A stretch of DNA of 42,367 nt from Litchfieldia sinesaloumensis (GTDB lineage Bacteria > Bacillota > Bacilli > Bacillales > Bacillaceae_L). The stretch covers positions 1,401,804 through 1,444,170 of the forward strand of contig NZ_LT732529.1 of the NCBI RefSeq assembly GCF_900156865.1, read 5' to 3'. The translations under genes were made by a program, and so were the position numbers. Below the pieces are notes generated by a model, which worked only from the letters and a program-made list of their open reading frames with translations, was not told the DNA's origin and searched no databases. Shown piece after piece: positions 1 to 38,743 of this stretch. How positions within the stretch are numbered: position 1 is the first letter of the stretch; each line of letters begins with the position of its first letter.

Positions 1-187
1 GCTTTTAAACTACCTATCTACTTAATTGCATGTGCAAATCTAATTTTCGCATGCTTTTATCGGTTTTTTGCTTTGAAAACATGCGCAAGTGGGCATTTTT
101 TACAAATATAGCAGCTTTACAACGAAAAAATTCCTTTTATTAGATCTTACGCATGCTTTTAAACTACCTAGCTACTTACATGTATGC
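1..187. repeat. 154-bp dispersed repeat, locus A (one full unit plus a partial one)
   Basis: Positions 34-187 form one full unit; 1-33 are the tail of a preceding unit cut by the window edge, and a new unit head (GCAAACC) starts at 188 and then diverges. The unit start motif GCAAA recurs exactly 154 bp apart (34 and 188). Shared landmarks with the other loci are the CGCATGC near unit position 15, an ATGCGCA core near the middle, GCATGCTTTTA near position 115, and a terminal ATGYRTGCGCAAA. This copy is the most diverged of the six, especially in its centre. The rest of 188-376 is AT-rich with no gene visible. Confidence 0.85.
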
Positions 188-9126: not shown

Positions 9127-9230
9127 TTCTTATCTATCAAGCTCGTCGCTTGCAGGATTTGGCACAGTACTATATAGTCTGTTGCCGAGGCTTCAAAGGG
9201 CCAGTCCCTCCACCTCTCTGGATAAGAATT
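9127..9230 (-). promoter_or_regulatory. SAM-I (S-box) riboswitch aptamer
   Basis: The minus strand shows the S-box core GAGGTGGAGGGACTGGCCC, then GAAGCCTCGGCAACAG, GTGCCAAATCCTGC and the closing GATAAGAA. P1 pairs TTCTTATC (9228-9221) with GATAAGAA (9134-9127). SAM binding stabilises P1, which uses part of the antiterminator strand, and so allows the downstream terminator to form. Methionine/SAM starvation should therefore turn on metNPQ and the two attached oxidoreductase genes. Confidence 0.95.
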
Positions 9231-14058: not shown

Positions 14059-14144
14059 GATTTTTACCTCCCTTTTTGTGTTTTACATTTTCTAAAAGCT
14101 GCTCTTCAAATATCGCTCGTTTAAATTTCATGGTTATGAAACAT

Positions 14145-14179
14145 CAAAATCCTAGCGATTTGGTTAATATCACTAGGAT
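14145..14179 (-). terminator. Terminator after the aldo/keto reductase gene
   Basis: Minus strand ATCCTAGTGAT pairs with ATCGCTAGGAT (one G-U) and is followed by a short T-run. It begins 14 bp after the stop at 14194. Confidence 0.75.
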
Positions 14180-14193
14180 GAAGGACTAACTAC

Positions 14194-15000
14194 TTATAAA
14201 TCTTCAATTTTTTCTATGTCTTCTGCAGATAAGACGAAATCGAAAAGATTTAAATTAGATGCTTGATTTTCACGGTTGTGAGACTTAGGAATAACAATCA
14301 CACCACGTTGGATTTGGTATTTTAATAAGACTTGTGCACCAGATTTATTATAGGCTTTACCGATTTCATCCAATACTTCTTTTTGTTGGACTTCGGCTTT
14401 CATAGGCCCCCACGCAACAGGTGTAATACCCTCGTCTTTTAATACAGCAAGGAGATCTTTATTAGGTTCTTTTAAGTTAACTTGTATTTGATTAACAGCT
14501 GGCTTCACATTAGCGAATGTTTTCAGTTCATCTAGATGATTTTTGCCGAAGTTTGAAACGCCGATTGCTTTTAGTTTGCCCGCTTCATAATATTCTTCAA
14601 AGACTTCCCAGGTGTTTTTAAGCTGCACTTTGTCTTCGATAGGGAAGTGAATAAGAAGCAGGTCTAGATAGTCTGTTTGAAAGTTTTTTAGACTGTTATC
14701 AATAGCCGCTCGAGTTGCTTCCTTTGAAGAGATATATTCTTCGTTGCCTGGAACTTTTGTCGTAATGAATAAATCTTCTCGAGGCACTGTGCTTTCTGCT
14801 AAAACTCTCCCGACAAGTTCTTCGTTTCGATAAATGATGGCCGCGTCTATTGAACGGTAACCCAACTCCAGGGCTGAAATGAGTTCAGGCATTTCATTTG
14901 TTAACGTCCCGTTATACTCATTATTTTCTTTTCCATACGTATTTGTGCCTGTACCTACAATTGGCATTCTTAACCCATTATTTAGTGTTATGTATTCCAT
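14194..15000 (-). CDS. Aldo/keto reductase (2,5-diketo-D-gluconate reductase type)
   Basis: 268 aa NADPH-dependent AKR of the shorter type. The catalytic tetrad is present: Asp52 and Tyr57 in SIDAAIIY, Lys82 in ITTKVP, His118 in LLIHFP. The C-terminus holds the cofactor-binding VIVIPKSHNRENQASNL. It is not closely related to the other AKR at 3845, which has a different spacing and length. Substrate unknown; such enzymes detoxify aldehydes such as methylglyoxal or reduce keto-sugars. Confidence 0.9.
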   Translation of the reverse strand: MEYITLNNGLRMPIVGTGTNTYGKENNEYNGTLTNEMPELISALELGYRSIDAAIIYRNEELVGRVLAESTVPREDLFITTKVPGNEEYISSKEATRAAIDNSLKNFQTDYLDLLLIHFPIEDKVQLKNTWEVFEEYYEAGKLKAIGVSNFGKNHLDELKTFANVKPAVNQIQVNLKEPNKDLLAVLKDEGITPVAWGPMKAEVQQKEVLDEIGKAYNKSGAQVLLKYQIQRGVIVIPKSHNRENQASNLNLFDFVLSAEDIEKIEDL

Positions 15001-15126
15001 ATTTTTAGCACTCCTCTGTATATTCTACTTAATTTTACTTACAAAGTGCATTATACCAAATTATAGAAAAAGCAACATGAGAGAAGTCGTAATTCTATTT
15101 TGAGCAAATCACCCACTAGCAAAATG

Positions 15127-15717
15127 TTAAAAGGGCATATACGTACCATCTTGATAAACCTTGTAATAACCTAAGTTTCCTGTTTTGCCAGATACACGCG
15201 TAGAGATTGAAACAAGTTGGATTGTATAGTATGAACCGTGATCATCTGATGCAAGTGTCTCGTCTACACCAAATGAAATATCGTCTTCTTTCCCCTCCGG
15301 AAGCTGCTTTTTTAAATGTTCGATTGCTTTTTCCCCACTTGAAATAACAATTTCCTGCTTTCCTTCACTACTATCGGTTTTCGATTTGCTATCGTTAGAC
15401 GAACCATTTGATTGAGTAGAATCTGATGTGTTGTCTGGTTTTGACTGATTTTTGGTTGATGTAGTGTTATCAGGTTTACTGGTATTCTGTGATGGCTTTC
15501 CTTCATCTTCTTTGGCAGATTTACTTCTATTCAGTTCACTATTTTGGGGACTGGCTGTGCTGTCAGCAGTAGTATCATCATTTGTGTTTTCTGTAATCTT
15601 ATCAGATTTCAATTCTTCTTTAGGAGACACTGTTTCATCTGATGATTTACTACAAGCAGTCATTCCTGCTACTAAAATCAATAAAGTTGCCACGATTAAA
15701 AGTTTTCTTTTTTTCAT
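15127..15717 (-). CDS. Lipoprotein with long Ser/Thr/Asn-rich linker
   Basis: 196 aa. The signal peptide ends at a lipobox AGMTAC (Cys22) and GGAGT precedes the ATG. Residues 23-120 are low-complexity Ser/Thr/Asn/Lys/Asp, a typical wall-spanning linker. The final 75 residues form a compact domain (EKAIEHLKKQLPEGKEDDISFGVDET ending in YYKVYQDGTYMPF, here quoted in parts). It starts 41 bp after the LCP-like gene, so it probably belongs to the sigma-factor operon and may be its envelope effector. The family is not recognised. Confidence 0.8.
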   Translation of the reverse strand: MKKRKLLIVATLLILVAGMTACSKSSDETVSPKEELKSDKITENTNDDTTADSTASPQNSELNRSKSAKEDEGKPSQNTSKPDNTTSTKNQSKPDNTSDSTQSNGSSNDSKSKTDSSEGKQEIVISSGEKAIEHLKKQLPEGKEDDISFGVDETLASDDHGSYYTIQLVSISTRVSGKTGNLGYYKVYQDGTYMPF

Positions 15718-15758
15718 TATTGGGACTCCTATCTTTTTTAAAAAACATTTCTAAAGAT

Positions 15759-16757
15759 TTAGTTAAATGTGGTTAACTCTTCAGAAATAGAATTCAAAAA
15801 TTCTTTTTCAAATTTAATATAGTATTTCTCATCTATCATTGTATCTGTCATTCCATCTACTAATGATACGGATTGTATCGAGGAAAGTTCCATTTTATTT
15901 TCTACCAATTGTTCAACTGGAAAATCCCCTTCAATTTTATTCGTATATTGATTTAATTGGCTTTGTGTTAATCCGGTTATTGTTTGATTTACTACTGCGT
16001 TAATGATCTTTAATAGGTTTTCTTCAGCCAATCTTCTACCCTCTGTAGCTGCCATCATTAATGCCACAATCTCTTCTCCATTTAAACGATTCGTCCCTTT
16101 TTTGAATTCAAATGACACTTGGGATATAGCTCTTACTTCAATATCTTCTTCCAGTTCGTAATCTACACCGTTCACTGAATCAATCAAACTTGAAAAGGTT
16201 TCTAAATCCATAACAGCATAATGATCAATAGGTAAATCAAATAGCTTAGAAACTGTAGTTTTAACACTTTCAGCTCCATCCGAACCGTACACATAGGCAA
16301 ATGTCAATTTATCATGAGTACTAGAACCATCATTCTTATCGATTGGAACATACGTATCACGAGGGAGCGATAGAACCTTCATCTTCTTTTTATCTTTACT
16401 ATAGGTAAGTAATAGGTTAATTGGAATTCGATCATTCTCATCCTTCACCATAAACAGAGCGGTGAAATACTCGTCTTCTTGAGCTACGACGCCACTTGCA
16501 TTATTTTCATTGTTCTCGTTATTCACATTTCCAAGAAATGAAGGAATAAACAAAACGATGCACAAGCCAACAACTAATAAAGAAGCTGTAAAAACGGAAA
16601 ATTGTTTTGAAATAGAAGAAAAAGATTTCTTTTGTGATTGATTACTATTTTCGTGATTATGAATCTGATCAAACACTTTTTTACGGTCTTCCTTCGTAAA
16701 TCTTAATTCGTCAAAAGAAATAGGAGTTAATTTACTTTTTAATTGTTTATCATCCAT
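15759..16757 (-). CDS. Membrane protein with anti-sigma-like N-terminus and degenerate LCP domain
   Basis: 332 aa. Residues 1-50 are cytoplasmic, containing FDELRFTKEDRKKVFDQIH, a pattern seen at the start of anti-sigma and related Bacillus membrane proteins. A single transmembrane helix spans about 53-75, and residues 95-260 resemble the LytR-CpsA-Psr domain (KVLSLPRDTYVPI, HDKLTFAYVYGSDGAESV, NGVDYELEEDI, RLNGEEIVALM). Key LCP residues appear changed: the usual Asp-Thr before the first strand is IPIN (111-114), and the usual YVR...DFGR...RQ block is replaced by MMAATEGRRLAEEN. It overlaps the ECF sigma gene by 8 bp, the normal position of a cognate anti-sigma factor. A non-catalytic sensing role is inferred. 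Confidence 0.8.
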   Translation of the reverse strand: MDDKQLKSKLTPISFDELRFTKEDRKKVFDQIHNHENSNQSQKKSFSSISKQFSVFTASLLVVGLCIVLFIPSFLGNVNNENNENNASGVVAQEDEYFTALFMVKDENDRIPINLLLTYSKDKKKMKVLSLPRDTYVPIDKNDGSSTHDKLTFAYVYGSDGAESVKTTVSKLFDLPIDHYAVMDLETFSSLIDSVNGVDYELEEDIEVRAISQVSFEFKKGTNRLNGEEIVALMMAATEGRRLAEENLLKIINAVVNQTITGLTQSQLNQYTNKIEGDFPVEQLVENKMELSSIQSVSLVDGMTDTMIDEKYYIKFEKEFLNSISEELTTFN

Positions 16758-17274
16758 AAAATTCAGCCTCCTTTATGATTGACTTTAATTTTTGTCTTGC
16801 TCTTCTTAATCGAGTTTTCACTGTATTAACAGAAATATCTAGTACATTAGCAATTTCCTCTGTCGATAATGATTCATAGTAATATAGATAAATCACTTCC
16901 CGATATATTTTCGGAAGAGAAAAGATATTCTCGATCATTTCTTCGTTATCATGTTTCGTAAGAACTGATTTCTCTGTTGATGGTAAAATTGATCTTGTTG
17001 TTTCATTAATAAAGCTTCTTACTTGTACCATTTTATAATTCCAACTTCTTAAATAATCTTTACACTCGTTAATTGTGATCCGATAGAGCCACGTTTTTAT
17101 TTGAGCGTCATATCGGAACGTATCAAGGTTTTTGTAGCATTTAATAAACGTATTTTGAACCATATCCTTTGCTAACTCTGCATCTTTCACATACGAAAAG
17201 GCCAATCGAACCAACTCATCACCATATTCAATCATCATTTTTTCTAGTATGTAATCTTTCTCTTCTCTGTCCAA
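16750..17274 (-). CDS. ECF-type RNA polymerase sigma factor
   Basis: 174 aa. Region 2 spans about 20-76 (LVRLAFSYVKDAELAKDMVQ, then TWLYRITINECKDYLR); region 4 spans about 119-165 (LPKIYREVIYLYYYESLS, TEEIANVLDISVNTVKTRL). There is no extra C-terminal domain, so this is a classic group 4 sigma. The start is TTG at 17274 with GGGAGGG 7 nt upstream. It overlaps the LCP-like gene. An ECF-type promoter lies directly upstream, implying autoregulation in response to cell-envelope stress. It resembles the SigV/SigX/SigM class, but I cannot assign it to one. Confidence 0.92.
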   Translation of the reverse strand: MDREEKDYILEKMMIEYGDELVRLAFSYVKDAELAKDMVQNTFIKCYKNLDTFRYDAQIKTWLYRITINECKDYLRSWNYKMVQVRSFINETTRSILPSTEKSVLTKHDNEEMIENIFSLPKIYREVIYLYYYESLSTEEIANVLDISVNTVKTRLRRARQKLKSIIKEAEFYG

Positions 17275-29583: not shown

Positions 29584-30009
29584 ATGAAAAAGAACATATT
29601 ACTAGGTTTAATTCTTTTTGCTGGTATTGCGTTATCCGGTTGTTCCGGTATAGTAGAAAATTCTTTAGACTCAAATGACAAAGCCGGTCTTGAAATTGCT
29701 ACTAAACAAGATACCGGAAACGGAAGTATGGAATTAGTAAACTCAACAATTACTACAAAAGATAATGAGTTGGAGATTATGACTGAGGGAATTGATGAAG
29801 ATAAAATAACTTTCATCTTCGTCGCCAATGAAAAAGTATTGGAACAAAGGATAAAAAATAATGAATCATACAAACTTAACATTAAAGATATCAAAGATGC
29901 TCATCGGACCGACTACAAGCCAAAAGTTCAACTTATTCAAACGAAAGATGATACTGTAGATGGAGACGTAGTAACCTTTAAACAGGTTAGGTATACAGTT
30001 AAAGACTAG
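29584..30009 (+). CDS. Small lipoprotein of unknown function
   Basis: 141 aa. Signal peptide with lipobox LSGC (Cys20); GAGGAGATG precedes the ATG. The mature part is beta-rich (KITFIFVANEKVLEQRIKNN, KPKVQLIQTKDD). No recognised domain. Single gene ended by a strong terminator. Confidence 0.75.
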   Translation: MKKNILLGLILFAGIALSGCSGIVENSLDSNDKAGLEIATKQDTGNGSMELVNSTITTKDNELEIMTEGIDEDKITFIFVANEKVLEQRIKNNESYKLNIKDIKDAHRTDYKPKVQLIQTKDDTVDGDVVTFKQVRYTVKD

Positions 30010-30190: not shown

Positions 30191-30499
30191 CGCCAACTTA
30201 CTTTTCGCATGCTTTTATGCAATTTTTGCCTCAAAGCGATGCGTATGTGGATAATTTTTACAATTCATTCGACTTCCACACCTGTTTTTACCTTTTCCTG
30301 GATTTTGCGCATACTTTTAGATTATTAAACTAGCTGAATGCATGCGCAAATTTACTTTTCGCATGCTTTTATACAATTTTTGCCTCAAAACGATGCGTAT
30401 GTGGATATTTTTCACAATTCACTCGACTTTTACACCTGTTTTTACCTTTTTCTGGATGTTGCGCATACTTTTAGATTACTAATCTATTTAATTGCATGC
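30187..30499. repeat. 154-bp dispersed repeat, locus B (two tandem units)
   Basis: Units 30192-30345 and 30346-30499, each exactly 154 bp, with the next unit head GCAAA at 30500. They are very similar to each other and clearly related to locus C. Each has CGCATGC near unit position 15, GATGCGTATGTGG near 48, CCTGTTTTTACCTTTTYCTGG in the second half (21-base consensus split as CCTGTTTTTACC and TTTTYCTGG), GCGCATACTTTTAGATTA near 115 and GCATGC at the end. Downstream, GCTGAAGTAGC at 30513 and CTTAACC at 30539 also recur after locus C. Lies between convergent genes. Confidence 0.92.
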
Positions 30500-30589: not shown

Positions 30590-31546
30590 TTACTTTAAAG
30601 CATCAAACGGTAAAAAGGCATGAACTCCCTTTGAGGAATTAACAATTTGTGTTACGCGTAAATCCACAACCATTGTAGCGTAGGCATAGGCTTCTGTTCT
30701 AGAAATATTATAAACTTGTGCCATTAAATCTAACATATCACTTAATGCCAGCCACATTGCTTCATCTAGATCCTCATGAAACGCCATCGTGATCCAGCCG
30801 TTTTTCGTCTTTGCTCGTGGTCTATTGATTTTCATATCATTTCTAACTTGAAAAGTGAGACTCACCCGCTCCATCGGACATTCTAATGCAGGGCCAGCCA
30901 CTTCACCGTCACCCTGAACAGCATGGCCATCTCCGGTAGAAAAAAGGCCACCATGAACAAACACTGGTAAATATAAAGTACTTCCAGCTCGAAGCTCTTT
31001 ACAATCAATATTTCCTCCGGTATTTCGGGGAACGATGGTCGAGTGTTGTCCTTCTTCCTTTGGCGGCATCCCCATAATGCCCATGAATGGCTGTAATGCT
31101 ACGCTGTACTTAAAATTCCCAAATTGACTTGTTCCTACCATTTTTTCAACATCCAAATCAAAATCTAGATATACTTCCTTCTCCTTATCCAATCCAAGTT
31201 TTTTGTTCCAATAACTCGGAAATCCACCAGCTGAAGTCCACCCCCAAGTACCTGGCACAATTTCATTAATGTTAATTTCTAACGTATCTCCCGCTTTAGC
31301 ATCTTGAATATAAACGGGACCAACTAACGAATGACCGAATTGTTTAGTTTGTCGTTCCTGTCGCAGTTTAGTAAAACGCTTTCTTGGCGTTCCTAAGGTA
31401 GAACGTTTTTCTAATCCCCAAGCTGAATCTAAGGTTCGAAAAATAACTGTGTCTCCTGAACAAATGGTCAATGCAGGTTCTAAATCTTTGCTGAAAAATC
31501 CATGCAAAGTGTCGGGAGTCGGCTCCAACTTATAAATTTTAGCCAT
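30590..31546 (-). CDS. Acetamidase/formamidase family protein
   Basis: 318 aa, ATG at 31546 with GGAGG 8 nt upstream. Family landmarks: LEPTPDTLHGFFSKDLEPAL at the N-terminus, HSLVGPVYIQDAKAGDTLEI, PFMGIMGMPP, and VFVHGGLFSTGDGHAVQGDG followed by EVAG. These enzymes hydrolyse short amides to ammonia and acid. No amide transporter is adjacent. Single gene. Confidence 0.92.
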   Translation of the reverse strand: MAKIYKLEPTPDTLHGFFSKDLEPALTICSGDTVIFRTLDSAWGLEKRSTLGTPRKRFTKLRQERQTKQFGHSLVGPVYIQDAKAGDTLEININEIVPGTWGWTSAGGFPSYWNKKLGLDKEKEVYLDFDLDVEKMVGTSQFGNFKYSVALQPFMGIMGMPPKEEGQHSTIVPRNTGGNIDCKELRAGSTLYLPVFVHGGLFSTGDGHAVQGDGEVAGPALECPMERVSLTFQVRNDMKINRPRAKTKNGWITMAFHEDLDEAMWLALSDMLDLMAQVYNISRTEAYAYATMVVDLRVTQIVNSSKGVHAFLPFDALK

Positions 31547-31889
31547 AGCTCTAACCTCCAAAGTTTAAAGTGTTGTTGAATGAACGAATAGTTGAAACTA
31601 TTTCCTGGTCTAGACACATGTAATTGGCCTACTTAATAATCTACGCTTTCTGATTTAATTACAGAGTAACACATTTTACTCCAAAGAGTAAATTAGATTA
31701 TTTAAAAATATAAATTAACAATAAAATTAACCGTAATAAAATTTATCGAGGTTTTAGTTTATAGGATTAATCTATAATATAAGGGCTTATTTATTTTATA
31801 AAATAATCATCTATTTTTAAAAACGAAGCCTACATCTTCTATTTTACTTCTTACCTGCTCCGTTACTTCAATGGTGTTAAACATAAAGA
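31547..31889. other. Gene-free interval upstream of the amidase gene
   Basis: AT-rich, with no reading frame I can support. It should contain the amidase promoter (minus strand). From 31854 it carries the CTGCTCCGTTACTTCAAT sequence that also flanks the terminator near 25 kb. Confidence 0.5.
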
Positions 31890-36891: not shown

Positions 36892-37572
36892 TCAGATAAG
36901 CATAAAACCTACTCCCCAAATGGTCTTAATATATTCTTCAGTTGTAATCTCAGAAATCTTCTTGCGGAGGTTAGAAACGTGGACACTGATTGTATTATCA
37001 TCACCATAATAGGTCCCTTTCCAGATACTTTCATAAATCTCCTTTTTTGATACAGCACGCTCAGGATTGTTAATGAAAAATGTTAAAATATCAAACTCTG
37101 CATTCGTCAGTTGTAGTTCGTTCCCTTTTAACGTAATAGTCCGTTTTTCGGTATTCATTTTCAAATCGCGCCATCCGATTTCCGCTGACTGTTCCGGGTG
37201 TGAGCTTGCTTTTCGTAATTGCACTTCCACACGGACCATCACTTCTTCCTGATGAAATGGTTTGGTTATATAATCATCTGCACCCATTTTCAAGACTTGC
37301 ACTTTATTTTCAATATCGACTTTGGCTGAAATGACAATGATCGGAATAGAACTCTTTTTTCTGATTTCCTTTAGCAGTTCTTCTCCACTTTTGCCCGGTA
37401 TCATCAAATCCAATAAAATCAAATCGAACGTATTAGTTTGCAGTTGCAATAATCCTTCTGTCCCCGAATAAGCTGCCACCGGAACCATCTGCGCTTTTTC
37501 CAAAATAAAACTCAGCAATCTACTAATCTCTTGATCGTCTTCAACGATTAAGACACGTTTACCTTCAAACAT
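36892..37572 (-). CDS. OmpR/PhoB-family response regulator
   Basis: 226 aa, ATG at 37572 with GGGTGAT upstream. Receiver domain with acidic pair Glu11/Asp12/Asp13, phosphoacceptor Asp55 (LILLDLMIPGKSG) and Lys in DYITKPF. Winged-helix domain from about 130 with FDILTFFINNPERAVSKKEI and ISVHVSNLRKKISE. First gene of the transporter/kinase cluster; the 95-bp gap to the ATPase gene may hold its target promoter. Confidence 0.93.
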   Translation of the reverse strand: MFEGKRVLIVEDDQEISRLLSFILEKAQMVPVAAYSGTEGLLQLQTNTFDLILLDLMIPGKSGEELLKEIRKKSSIPIIVISAKVDIENKVQVLKMGADDYITKPFHQEEVMVRVEVQLRKASSHPEQSAEIGWRDLKMNTEKRTITLKGNELQLTNAEFDILTFFINNPERAVSKKEIYESIWKGTYYGDDNTISVHVSNLRKKISEITTEEYIKTIWGVGFMLI

Positions 37573-37800
37573 AAGTATCACCCATTTTTTATATGTATCT
37601 TTTTGTACTAGTTCTAATGATTATAATTCATTATAACGTATTTCGTTTAGGAGAATATGGAAAATGTGGAGTGGAATATGAGTAGAAGGTAGAAAAGTAC
37701 TACTCTTATAAAAAATAAAAAGGTAAATTACTTTAGTAGTTTCTAAGAATGACCAAAGTAGAGGGTAAGTTGCTCTTAGAAATGAGTTTGGGTGCCACGC

Positions 37801-37877: not shown

Positions 37878-38339
37878 GCAAATCTACTTTTCGCATGTTT
37901 TTAGCGAAATTTCGTCTCAAAAGGATGTGAATGTGGAGATTTTTTACAATTGTTATAGCTTCCATTCATGTTTTTACCTTTTTCTGGATGCTGCGCATGC
38001 TTTTAGGCTACTAATCTACATAAATGCATGCGCAAATCTACTTATCGCATGGTTTTAGCGTATTTTCGTCTCAAAAGGATGCACATGTGGAGATTTTTTA
38101 CAATTATTATAGCTTTTACACCTGTTTTTACCTTTTTCTGGATGCTGCGCATACTTTTAGGCTACTAATCTACATAAATGCATGCGCAAATCTACTTATC
38201 GCATGGTTTTAGCGAATTTTCGTCTCAAAAGGATGCGCATGTGGAAATCACTTACAATTATTACAACTTCCACACCTATTTTTACCTTTTCCTGGATATT
38301 ACGTATGCTTTTTGACTACTAATCTACTCGAATGCATGT
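37878..38339. repeat. 154-bp dispersed repeat, locus C (three tandem units)
   Basis: Units 37878-38031, 38032-38185 and 38186-38339 are each exactly 154 bp; a further unit head GCAAACCC starts at 38340. Units 1 and 2 are nearly identical and unit 3 diverges slightly. The consensus begins GCAAATCTACTTATCGCATG and continues GTTTTAGCGAATTTTCGTCT, then CAAAAGGATGCGCATGTGGA. At each junction TGCGCATGC (about 113-121) can pair with the next GCATGCGCA across a 25-nt loop, and GCATGCG with CGCATGC across 13 nt. GCTGAAATAGC at 38351 matches the sequence after locus B. No gene is seen in 37573-38392. Confidence 0.95.
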
Positions 38340-38392: not shown

Positions 38393-38743
38393 TTATCTTC
38401 CCATCATTTTCATTACCAGTTTTTTAGGCAGTTCATAATGGGCTATTACAATAAGGATATACAATTCAAATAACCAAATATTTAAGCCTAAGTCGTAATC
38501 CTCATTATTTATTTTCTTTTCGAATTCATTCATTAATCCGATTATTAAAGCACAGACAAGAAAATATAAATATTGGGTTAATACATAAACCCACTCTTCT
38601 TTAGGTTCCCCTATTGCACCAATCGCTGAAAATAATGTCACGACGAAGAACCATACGCTCAAGACTATAGAAATAATCAAAATAACAAATCGAACAAACC
38701 CAAAAATATATAACACGAGCGTTTTGATTTTTATCACCACCAT
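38393..38743 (-). CDS. Small multi-helix membrane protein
   Basis: 116 aa with three hydrophobic segments (about 8-42, 50-70, 87-103) and a basic C-terminus (PKKLVMKMMGR). The start is uncertain: ATG at 38743 has no clear ribosome binding site. Family not recognised. It lies directly downstream, in map terms, of repeat locus C. Confidence 0.55.
   Translation of the reverse strand: MVVIKIKTLVLYIFGFVRFVILIISIVLSVWFFVVTLFSAIGAIGEPKEEWVYVLTQYLYFLVCALIIGLMNEFEKKINNEDYDLGLNIWLFELYILIVIAHYELPKKLVMKMMGR

What the first reader, a model, noticed from the sequence alone, without database searches (positions are those of the whole stretch)
37878..38339. Dispersed intergenic repeat with a unit of exactly 154 bp in every complete copy
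Six complete units at three loci (34-187; 30192-30345 and 30346-30499; 37878-38031, 38032-38185 and 38186-38339) are all 154 bp, although locus A has diverged a lot in sequence. Length held while sequence drifts suggests selection on spacing or structure, or a copying mechanism that preserves length. There is no transposase and no reading frame: 154 is not a multiple of 3. The B. cereus group bcr1 repeats are, as I recall, of similar size, but I see no basis to claim homology.
Basis: seen in the sequence. Interest (0 to 1): 0.85.

Follow-up and report, generated by a model that had tools for sequence, protein, structure and literature searches.

The report
Fifteen-turn curved DNA repeat arrays
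Some Bacillus relatives carry short tandem arrays of a 154-base non-coding DNA block whose length matches fifteen turns of the double helix, and which looks more like a bent-DNA platform read by an unknown protein than like an RNA, a gene or an ordinary junk repeat.

Summary
All six units are 154 bp. The family fills 17 host loci and recurs in three same-genus genomes. In fetched arrays 75 of 76 spacings are 153-155 bp, though 19 host units average 58% identity. Units carry 4.6 indels per 100 substitutions, flanks 23.0. A likely reason: AA/TT steps recur every 10.1-10.3 bp in 40 of 40 stretches, and 154/15 = 10.27, so a unit is 15 helical turns; two wedge models predict curvature. Each unit has four copies of one motif in alternating orientation. 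Only 4 of 154 columns differ almost completely between host and F. onubensis group, and they are one base of the four copies, which suggests a trans-acting DNA-binding factor. Arrays lie at gene 3' ends: 22 convergent, 15 tandem, 0 divergent. Rfam, RAYT-REP and bcr1 membership were not supported; a hairpin at unit junctions remains possible. Best reading: a curved-DNA architectural module working like BIME arrays. The protein and any cellular effect are inferred.

The parts
1..33 (+). 3' part of a preceding repeat unit of array A, directly after an N run in the genome
   Evidence: nhmmer match window 1-32; N run ends at L014:16804
34..187 (+). repeat unit A, 154 bp, last complete unit of a long N-interrupted array (C3:1395143-1401990)
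30192..30345 (+). repeat unit B1, 154 bp
30346..30499 (+). repeat unit B2, 154 bp; array B lies between convergent ORFs 29584-30009(+) and 30590-31561(-)
37878..38031 (+). repeat unit C1, 154 bp
38032..38185 (+). repeat unit C2, 154 bp
38186..38339 (+). repeat unit C3, 154 bp; array C lies between two minus-strand ORFs (36892-37581 and 38393-38743)
38046..38051 (+). motif copy F1 in unit C2 (unit positions 15-20)
   Evidence: conserved columns
38079..38085 (-). motif copy R1 in unit C2 (unit positions 48-54)
38147..38153 (+). motif copy F2 in unit C2 (unit positions 116-122)
38180..38188 (-). motif copy R2 spanning the junction of units C2 and C3 (unit positions 149-154 and 1-3); with F1 of the next unit it forms the 13-pair inverted repeat with a 9-nt gap

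Best explanation
This is a non-coding, DNA-level architectural module. Each 154-bp unit is 15 helical turns of DNA (10.27 bp per turn) with A/T tracts repeated in helical phase, so units join in phase and an array forms one long, intrinsically curved segment. Four copies of an asymmetric motif, about T-N-C-G-(C in the host; T or A in the F. onubensis group)-A-T-G-C-T-T-T-T, sit in alternating orientation at fixed places in each unit and are probably bound by a trans-acting DNA-binding protein. Arrays sit at the 3' ends of genes, above all between convergent genes, where transcription-driven supercoiling is expected to collect (general knowledge, not tested). They most likely bend or wrap DNA there and set local topology or nucleoid folding, in the way proposed for BIME arrays in enteric bacteria. 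SHOWN: fixed spacing, deficit of indels, phased AA/TT steps, concerted motif difference between clades, gene-end location, single-clade distribution in the genomes searched, array presence or absence at an orthologous site. PREDICTED BY MODEL: curvature. INFERRED: the protein, the wrapping, the topological role.
For: Spacing 153/154/155 in 19/44/12 of 76 neighbouring unit pairs, one at 149. Indels per 100 substitutions: 4.6 in units (identity 0.84) against 23.0 in flanks (identity 0.86) of nine pairs of positional orthologs. AA/TT spectral peak at 10.1-10.3 bp in 40 of 40 array stretches (one counted twice, one N-containing stretch left out); in 39 of 40 at most 10 of 200 dinucleotide shuffles reach the power at 10.27 bp; background windows have no such peak. 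Pooled AA/TT power 2.49 over 40 units against shuffle mean 0.29, sd 0.06 (60 shuffle rounds of 20 of the 40 units). AA/TT frequency falls from 0.60 to 0.05 with helical phase. Predicted end-to-end/contour ratio 0.76 in units, 0.92-0.94 in shuffles, 0.91-0.93 in 195 other intergenic windows, under two wedge models. Exactly 4 of 154 columns (17, 50, 119, 153) exceed a divergence of 0.5 between 19 host and 21 other units, and they are the same base of the four motif copies; identity among host units (0.58) equals identity between clades (0.58). The motif is rare outside arrays: 2 in 190 kb of host flanks against 63 in 7.5 kb of arrays; 4 in 126 kb against 100 in 8.8 kb for the other clade's form. 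Convergent 22 of 37 against 20 of 124 background gene pairs, divergent 0 of 37 against 27 of 124. Neighbours of host arrays share no evident function.
Against: No binding protein was identified; apart from one histone-fold search none was looked for. Phasing exceeds that of random substitutions at random positions in 39 of 40 units (means 2.59 and 1.22), but random letters at the actual changed positions keep nearly as much (26 of 40 above; mean 2.36), so selection for curvature cannot be separated from selection on conserved sites that are themselves phased. Units are homologous, so shared length and phase partly reflect descent. Wedge parameters were recalled from memory. The abstract of PMC7537859 argues that the core periodic dinucleotides of genomes do not impart bending. 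The family was not found in 5 of 9 genus genomes, so it is dispensable for the genus. Array L047 has weak phasing (28 of 200 shuffles). The 21 other-clade units include orthologous copies and are not independent. In the unit tree the host array L053 does not group with its positional orthologs.
Confidence: 0.5

Rival explanations
1. Neutral satellite: a founder unit spread and is homogenised by slippage and unequal crossing-over; length and phasing are inherited, not selected.
For: Neighbouring units cluster by locus; copy number differs between positional orthologs (5, 7 and 4 unit matches, partial ones included, at the NERD-PotD locus); not found in 5 of 9 genus genomes; the same-position substitution null keeps most of the phasing.
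Against: Fivefold indel deficit at matched divergence; 153-155 bp kept at 58% mean identity among host units; near-complete differences only at the four equivalent motif bases; strong bias to gene 3' ends.
Confidence: 0.18
2. MITE-like or REP/BIME-like mobile element: the inverted motifs are transposase sites and arrays are insertions.
For: Presence/absence at one orthologous convergent pair: gap of 36-71 bp in G000, G001, G003, G005, G008 against 750-903 bp with an array in G004, G006, G007, the extra DNA lying between the two arms of the bidirectional terminator. Inverted motif pairs at the unit junction.
Against: 14 of 21 fetched stretches of G004, G006, G007 fall into 6 groups of positional orthologs, and two host arrays match places in those genomes. 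Y1_Tnp genes occur in 4 of 4 repeat-bearing and 3 of 5 other genus genomes, and the host copies lie more than 50 kb from the nearest array. The extra DNA at the empty-site locus also carries non-repeat flanks. Array C has no match in plasmids or phages. Target-site duplications were not searched for systematically.
Confidence: 0.17
3. Hairpin element: the 13-pair inverted repeat at each unit junction acts as an RNA hairpin (terminator or stability element) or an extruded DNA cruciform.
For: Junction folds far better than mononucleotide shuffles: mean z -5.7 in 50 F. onubensis-group units, -3.9 in 47 host units; the F1-R1 and F2-R2 inverted pairs are weaker (mean z -1.4 to -2.3), and whole units average -1.5 to -2.1. 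85.8% of cells paired against 83.0% in shuffles and at most 55.3% when slid; covariation score 0.135 against 0.087, 0 of 500 shuffles as high. Location at gene 3' ends.
Against: 15 of the 24 cells changed on both sides come from one pair, the clade-switch base; at pair 22:34, 25 of 39 cells are unpaired, at 15:41, 10 of 40. RNAalifold predicts no structure on the junction alignment. One whole unit folds no better than dinucleotide shuffles (z 0.56). Does not explain 154-bp spacing or 10.27-bp phasing. No Rfam hit on the window's copies.
Confidence: 0.1
4. Sites for a known initiator or an effect of restriction-modification: DnaA titration arrays, or avoidance of TGCGCA.
For: DnaA-box-like words in host units: 10 of 47 units within one mismatch against 2.4 expected from mononucleotide shuffles. 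TGCGCA is under-represented in F. onubensis-group flanks (8 against 19 expected, each site counted on both strands).
Against: DnaA-like words are not enriched in the other clade: 4 of 50 against 2.6 expected. TGCGCA is low in repeat-free genus DNA too (2 against 9), so its rarity does not track the clade difference; GCGC is not avoided (O/E 1.03); counts are small. Neither idea explains phasing or unit length.
Confidence: 0.05

Closest known systems
REP/BIME arrays (enteric bacteria and others; PMC3733652, passages read)
   Same: Intergenic inverted motifs that can cluster in tandem, mainly between convergent or unidirectional genes, unevenly distributed among species.
   Different: Fixed 154-bp unit matching 15 helical turns; no GTAG or CGTC tag conserved next to the stem; no linked RAYT gene; four motif copies per unit. 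Binding of BIMEs by gyrase, IHF and Pol I is recalled, not tested here.
B. cereus group repeats bcr1-bcr18 (PMC6542083 and PMC3446304, passages read)
   Same: Intergenic repeats of 100-400 bp in a Bacillaceae group; bcr1 averages 39 copies per strain.
   Different: Different host genus; tandem arrays are common here; helical phasing; TTTAT not consistently at array ends (B none within 40 bp, C on both sides 25-30 bp away). No sequence comparison was possible.
Curved intergenic DNA with AA/TT periodicity (PMC516772, passages; PMC3940949, abstract)
   Same: Periodic AA/TT steps near the helical repeat, linked to curvature, concentrated in intergenic DNA, with curvature peaks downstream of coding sequences.
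   Different: Those are diffuse genome properties with a period near 11 bp in E. coli; here it is a discrete repeat family at 10.27 bp tied to the unit length.
Nucleosome-length eukaryotic satellites (PMC8122249, start of abstract in a search listing only)
   Same: Tandem units of nucleosome-like length.
   Different: Bacterial, short arrays at gene ends; no histone-fold match above the Pfam cut-off in 9 genus genomes, 4 sub-threshold ones.

Membership tests
REP/BIME (GTAG- or CGTC-tagged REP) | 20-40 bp palindrome tagged by GTAG or CGTC next to the stem | tested here: not met
   By eye, the consensus has no such tag conserved beside the junction stem
REP/BIME (GTAG- or CGTC-tagged REP) | linked RAYT (Y1) transposase gene | tested here: not met
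   Y1_Tnp in 4 of 4 repeat-bearing and 3 of 5 other genus genomes; host copies at 3.16-3.18 Mb, nearest array at 3.231 Mb
REP/BIME (GTAG- or CGTC-tagged REP) | mainly between convergent or unidirectional genes | tested here: met
   22 convergent, 15 tandem, 0 divergent of 37 placed
REP/BIME (GTAG- or CGTC-tagged REP) | binding by gyrase or IHF | not testable with these tools
   needs protein-DNA assays
bcr1-bcr18 | restricted to the B. cereus group | tested here: not met
   Host genus is Ferdinandcohnia
bcr1-bcr18 | TTTAT motif at the element | tested here: inconclusive
   Array B none within 40 bp; array C on both sides 25-30 bp away; other arrays not examined
bcr1-bcr18 | sequence similarity to bcr consensus | not tested
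   Consensus not available; founding paper not held
structured non-coding RNA | Rfam family match | tested here: not met
   No match in the window's repeats at gathering threshold; other loci not scanned
structured non-coding RNA | compensatory changes across a helix | tested here: inconclusive
   5 of 13 pairs have changes on both sides and the score exceeds 500 of 500 shuffles, but 15 of 24 such cells are the clade-switch base and other pairs are uncompensated; RNAalifold none
intrinsically curved DNA | A/T tracts in phase with the helical repeat | tested here: met
   40 of 40 stretches peak at 10.1-10.3 bp
intrinsically curved DNA | measured anomalous mobility or cyclization | not testable with these tools
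   only predicted, with recalled wedge parameters

The most novel reading that the evidence does not exclude
A bacterial, nucleosome-length, helically phased satellite: a fixed 15-turn DNA unit that wraps on a lineage-specific protein whose recognition base changed between two clades, carrying its sites (four per unit, so roughly 200 in the host by my estimate) with it, as a dedicated chromosome-architecture system placed at converging gene ends.
Probability: 0.35. Interest if true: 0.85.

Novelty: new variant of a known kind. Interest (0 to 1): 0.68.

Why it matters
Bacterial intergenic repeats are usually explained as mobile debris or RNA signals. Here the unit length itself has a physical reading, a whole number of helical turns, so the old idea that curved DNA at gene ends helps to organise bacterial chromosomes becomes testable on a natural set of arrays with natural copy-number and motif variants. 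The clade-specific base gives a direct handle for finding the protein.

Tried and rejected
Structured RNA on single units (z 0.56) was first taken as final; it missed an inverted repeat that spans the unit junction, which was then tested. DnaA boxes: enriched in host units, not in the other clade. Histone fold: PF00808 has no match above cut-off in 9 genomes, four sub-threshold matches. RAYT association: none. Restriction-site avoidance: weak, small counts, also seen in repeat-free genomes. Plasmid or phage origin: array C has no match. Degenerate DNA patterns for a whole-collection scan had poor recall and were not used; the one genome-contig scan went to a neighbouring protein, which named the genus. 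The first indel count (7-28 gaps per 100 mismatches between units of different loci) was set aside because its lenient gap scoring opens gaps in A/T-rich pairs; it had no flank control. The NERD protein gave only distant paralogs, about 36-43% identical at best, in the repeat-free genomes, and the six potD loci searched (G001, G002, G003, G005, G006, G008) have no repeat. Protein P0003 beside array B has no full-length counterpart in 8 genus genomes. At the L063 locus G002 has 835 bp without the repeat, and in G000, G001 and G008 the next gene was not found within the fetched flank. Two weak single hits in other families have no tandem repeat around them and are treated as chance, as are the single weak hits in G003 and G013. 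Two very weak host matches (C3:1363101 and 2374451) were fetched but not counted.

Full report
OBSERVATION. Tandem Repeats Finder reports period 154 with no indels for arrays B and C. Array A is cut by the window edge: the host genome has two N runs (3281 and 2668 bases) inside what looks like one array from C3:1395143 to 1401990, with similar units before, between and after them. The distance is about 44.5 unit lengths if the N lengths are right; they may be estimates, since units on either side are not a whole number of units apart.

EXTENT. A DNA search of the host genome gave 13 hits; a sequence-only profile from 13 units gave 73 matches at E<=1, some of them reverse-strand echoes of the same units (150 of 3611 candidates scored). 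I count 17 loci, taking the N-interrupted array as one and leaving out the weakest matches. In 100 related genomes the same profile hit 4, host included, all in one genus (30 candidates scored per genome). A second profile from 40 units gave 69, 39, 48 and 45 matches at E<=0.01 in G000, G004, G006 and G007, and nothing convincing in the other 5 genus genomes or 8 other family members (G003 and G013: one weak hit each, 150 candidates per genome). In 299 genomes of the order it hit the host and two others with one weak match each (stricter filters, 10 candidates per genome; G004, G006 and G007 are not among its hits and were presumably not drawn). Record titles of a neighbour-protein scan name G004 and G007 as Fredinandcohnia (in NCBI taxonomy Ferdinandcohnia) onubensis, by matching contig lengths. 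A tree of one region (2471 bp around potD, rooted by me on G008) groups the four repeat-bearing genomes with support 95.

LENGTH. I fetched the 17 host loci and 20 regions of the other three genomes (21 array stretches; not all their arrays). Among 41 stretches there are 76 neighbouring spacings: 153 (19), 154 (44), 155 (12), 149 (1). One single-unit stretch is listed twice (L014:16838 and window:34 are the same DNA); it adds no spacing, but it is also counted twice among the 40 stretches and the 97 units. Nineteen host units (three of them from array A) are on average 58% identical. For nine pairs of positionally orthologous arrays, with flanking proteins 93-99% identical, flanks have 392 substitutions and 90 indel events, and unit pairs 1575 and 72: 23.0 against 4.6 indels per 100 substitutions at similar identity. 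The unit pairs are not independent and some flanks hold decayed partial units, so the ratio is approximate. An earlier count with looser gap scoring and no flank control gave 7-28 gaps per 100 mismatches between units and was set aside.

WHY 154. AA and TT steps within units recur with a period of 10.2-10.3 bp: pooled power 2.49 over 40 units against a shuffle mean of 0.29 (sd 0.06, maximum 0.56, from 20 of the units). Array by array, 40 of 40 stretches peak at 10.1-10.3 bp, and in 39 of 40 at most 10 of 200 dinucleotide shuffles reach the observed power at 10.27 bp; the exception is L047 (28 of 200), which also has the 149-bp spacing; one stretch with N was left out. Windows outside arrays show no such peak (1111 host windows, 784 others); 195 other intergenic windows show a weak hump near 10.75 bp. 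Since 154/15 = 10.27, a unit holds 15 helical turns; arrays with mostly 153- or 155-bp spacing tend to peak slightly lower or higher (for example L054 at 10.2, L053 at 10.3). Across the alignment AA/TT frequency runs from 0.60 on one helical face to 0.05 on the other. Two dinucleotide wedge models (parameters recalled) predict an end-to-end/contour ratio of 0.76 for units against 0.92-0.94 for shuffles and 0.91-0.93 for other intergenic windows; 21 of 40 and 32 of 40 units lie below the fifth percentile of those windows. A stricter test is mixed: phasing exceeds that of random substitution at random positions in 39 of 40 units (means 2.59 and 1.22), but is close to random letters at the actual variable positions (26 of 40 above; mean 2.36). 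So the conserved columns carry the phasing, and selection on curvature cannot be told from selection on phased sites. The abstract of PMC7537859 also warns that core periodic dinucleotides in genomes need not bend DNA.

MOTIF AND ITS SWITCH. Each unit carries one motif four times in alternating orientation, at unit positions about 15-21, 47-54, 115-122 and 149-3. Comparing 19 host units with 21 units from the other three genomes, exactly 4 of 154 columns exceed a Jensen-Shannon divergence of 0.5, namely 17, 50, 119 and 153, with values 0.72-0.95; the next is 0.49 and the median 0.08. They are the same base of the four motif copies: C, G, C, G in 18, 18, 19 and 18 of 19 host units; T, A, A, A in 18, 19, 16 and 18 of 21 others. 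Identity among host units (0.58) is no higher than host-to-other identity (0.58). Arrays at two shared places differ at all four bases too: L053 against L059 and L075, and L050 against L074; in L059 and L075 the new base is not always the commonest one of the clade (T at 153 in both, T at 50 in L075). The simplest cause is a factor in trans that reads all four sites. A younger expansion from a changed founder in the other clade (identity 0.72 among its units) could have helped to fix it, but would not by itself pick out the equivalent base of all four copies. The 21 units include orthologous copies and are not independent.

INVERTED REPEAT. Motif R2 of one unit and F1 of the next form a 13-pair inverted repeat with a 9-nt gap. 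It folds better than mononucleotide shuffles (mean z -5.7 in 50 units, -3.9 in 47); the other two inverted pairs are weaker, and whole units average -1.5 to -2.1. It is paired in 85.8% of cells against 83.0% in shuffles, with a covariation score that no shuffle of 500 reaches. But 15 of the 24 cells changed on both sides are the switch base, and several variable pairs are not compensated (25 of 39 and 10 of 40 cells unpaired). RNAalifold predicts no structure. I read this as two protein sites in dyad arrangement rather than a conserved hairpin; a hairpin or cruciform is not excluded.

PLACE AND HISTORY. Of 41 stretches, 37 could be placed by a simple longest-ORF rule: 22 between convergent genes, 15 between tandem genes, none between divergent genes; 4 could not be placed. 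Among 124 array-free gene pairs in the same DNA the counts are 20, 77 and 27 (convergent enrichment p 7e-7, divergent depletion p 7e-4; with orthologs collapsed 15 of 28, p 8e-5, and 0 of 28, p 0.005). Neighbours of host arrays share no evident function. At one convergent pair the gap is 36-71 bp in five genomes including the host, about 647 bp without a repeat match in G002, and 750-903 bp including an array in G004, G006 and G007, the extra DNA lying between the two arms of the bidirectional terminator. So arrays are gained over evolutionary time (loss elsewhere is less economical), then inherited in place with changing copy number. In the unit tree the host array L053 does not group with its positional orthologs, so deep relationships among units are blurred.

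MECHANISM. I commit to a curved-DNA architectural module bound by a protein, at about even odds. Placement between converging transcription units suggests a role in topology or local folding, as proposed for BIMEs and curved gene-end DNA; this step is inference. The protein is unknown. Gyrase is a natural candidate because it wraps DNA of about this length (recalled), but nothing here tests it, and a universal enzyme does not explain the clade-specific base; a lineage-specific nucleoid protein would.

PRIOR WORK. A search for '154 bp' with 'tandem', 'intergenic repeat' and 'Bacillus' found no paper; six 154-bp repeat phrases found two papers, both on Drosophila virilis by their titles; a search on tandem arrays, curved DNA, bacterial chromosome, satellite and nucleoid proteins listed one paper, off topic by its title; gyrase cleavage sites with wrapping and periodicity found none. 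The library holds only open-licence papers, so a description in a subscription journal could exist.

Noticed in passing
L014:10470-13750 and 14137-16804 (host C3:1395469-1398749 and 1399136-1401803): Two N runs lie inside a repeat array next to the window start; similar units before, between and after them suggest a long array of about 6.8 kb that the assembly did not resolve. N runs also occur elsewhere in fetched host DNA (L017, L054).
   Followed up: partly
L096:1285-1478 (G006): A different tandem repeat, 52-bp unit, 3.7 copies, next to potD in G006, where G004 and G007 have the NERD gene and a 154-bp array; 52 bp is close to five helical turns.
   Followed up: no
L016:9325-9660 (host C3:3235324-3235659): Tandem repeats with 21- and 42-bp units containing TATGGGACA, close to two and four helical turns.
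   Followed up: no
L111 (G002), 3' flank of the gene for the 633-aa protein: About 600 bp without a match to the repeat sits inside the same bidirectional terminator that is split by an array in G004, G006 and G007; the terminator loop looks like a repeated insertion target.
   Followed up: partly
window 9127-9228 (-): SAM riboswitch (RF00162, 93.6 bits), the only Rfam hit of the window at gathering threshold.
   Followed up: no
G004, G006, G007 flanks (125,570 bp) and repeat-free genus loci (39,759 bp): TGCGCA is under-represented outside arrays (O/E 0.42 and 0.22, small counts; host 0.84), a possible hint of a methyltransferase or nuclease in the genus.
   Followed up: partly
host C3:1395143-1440141: Arrays A, B and C lie within 45 kb of each other and form one subfamily in the unit tree, as if spread locally.
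   Followed up: no
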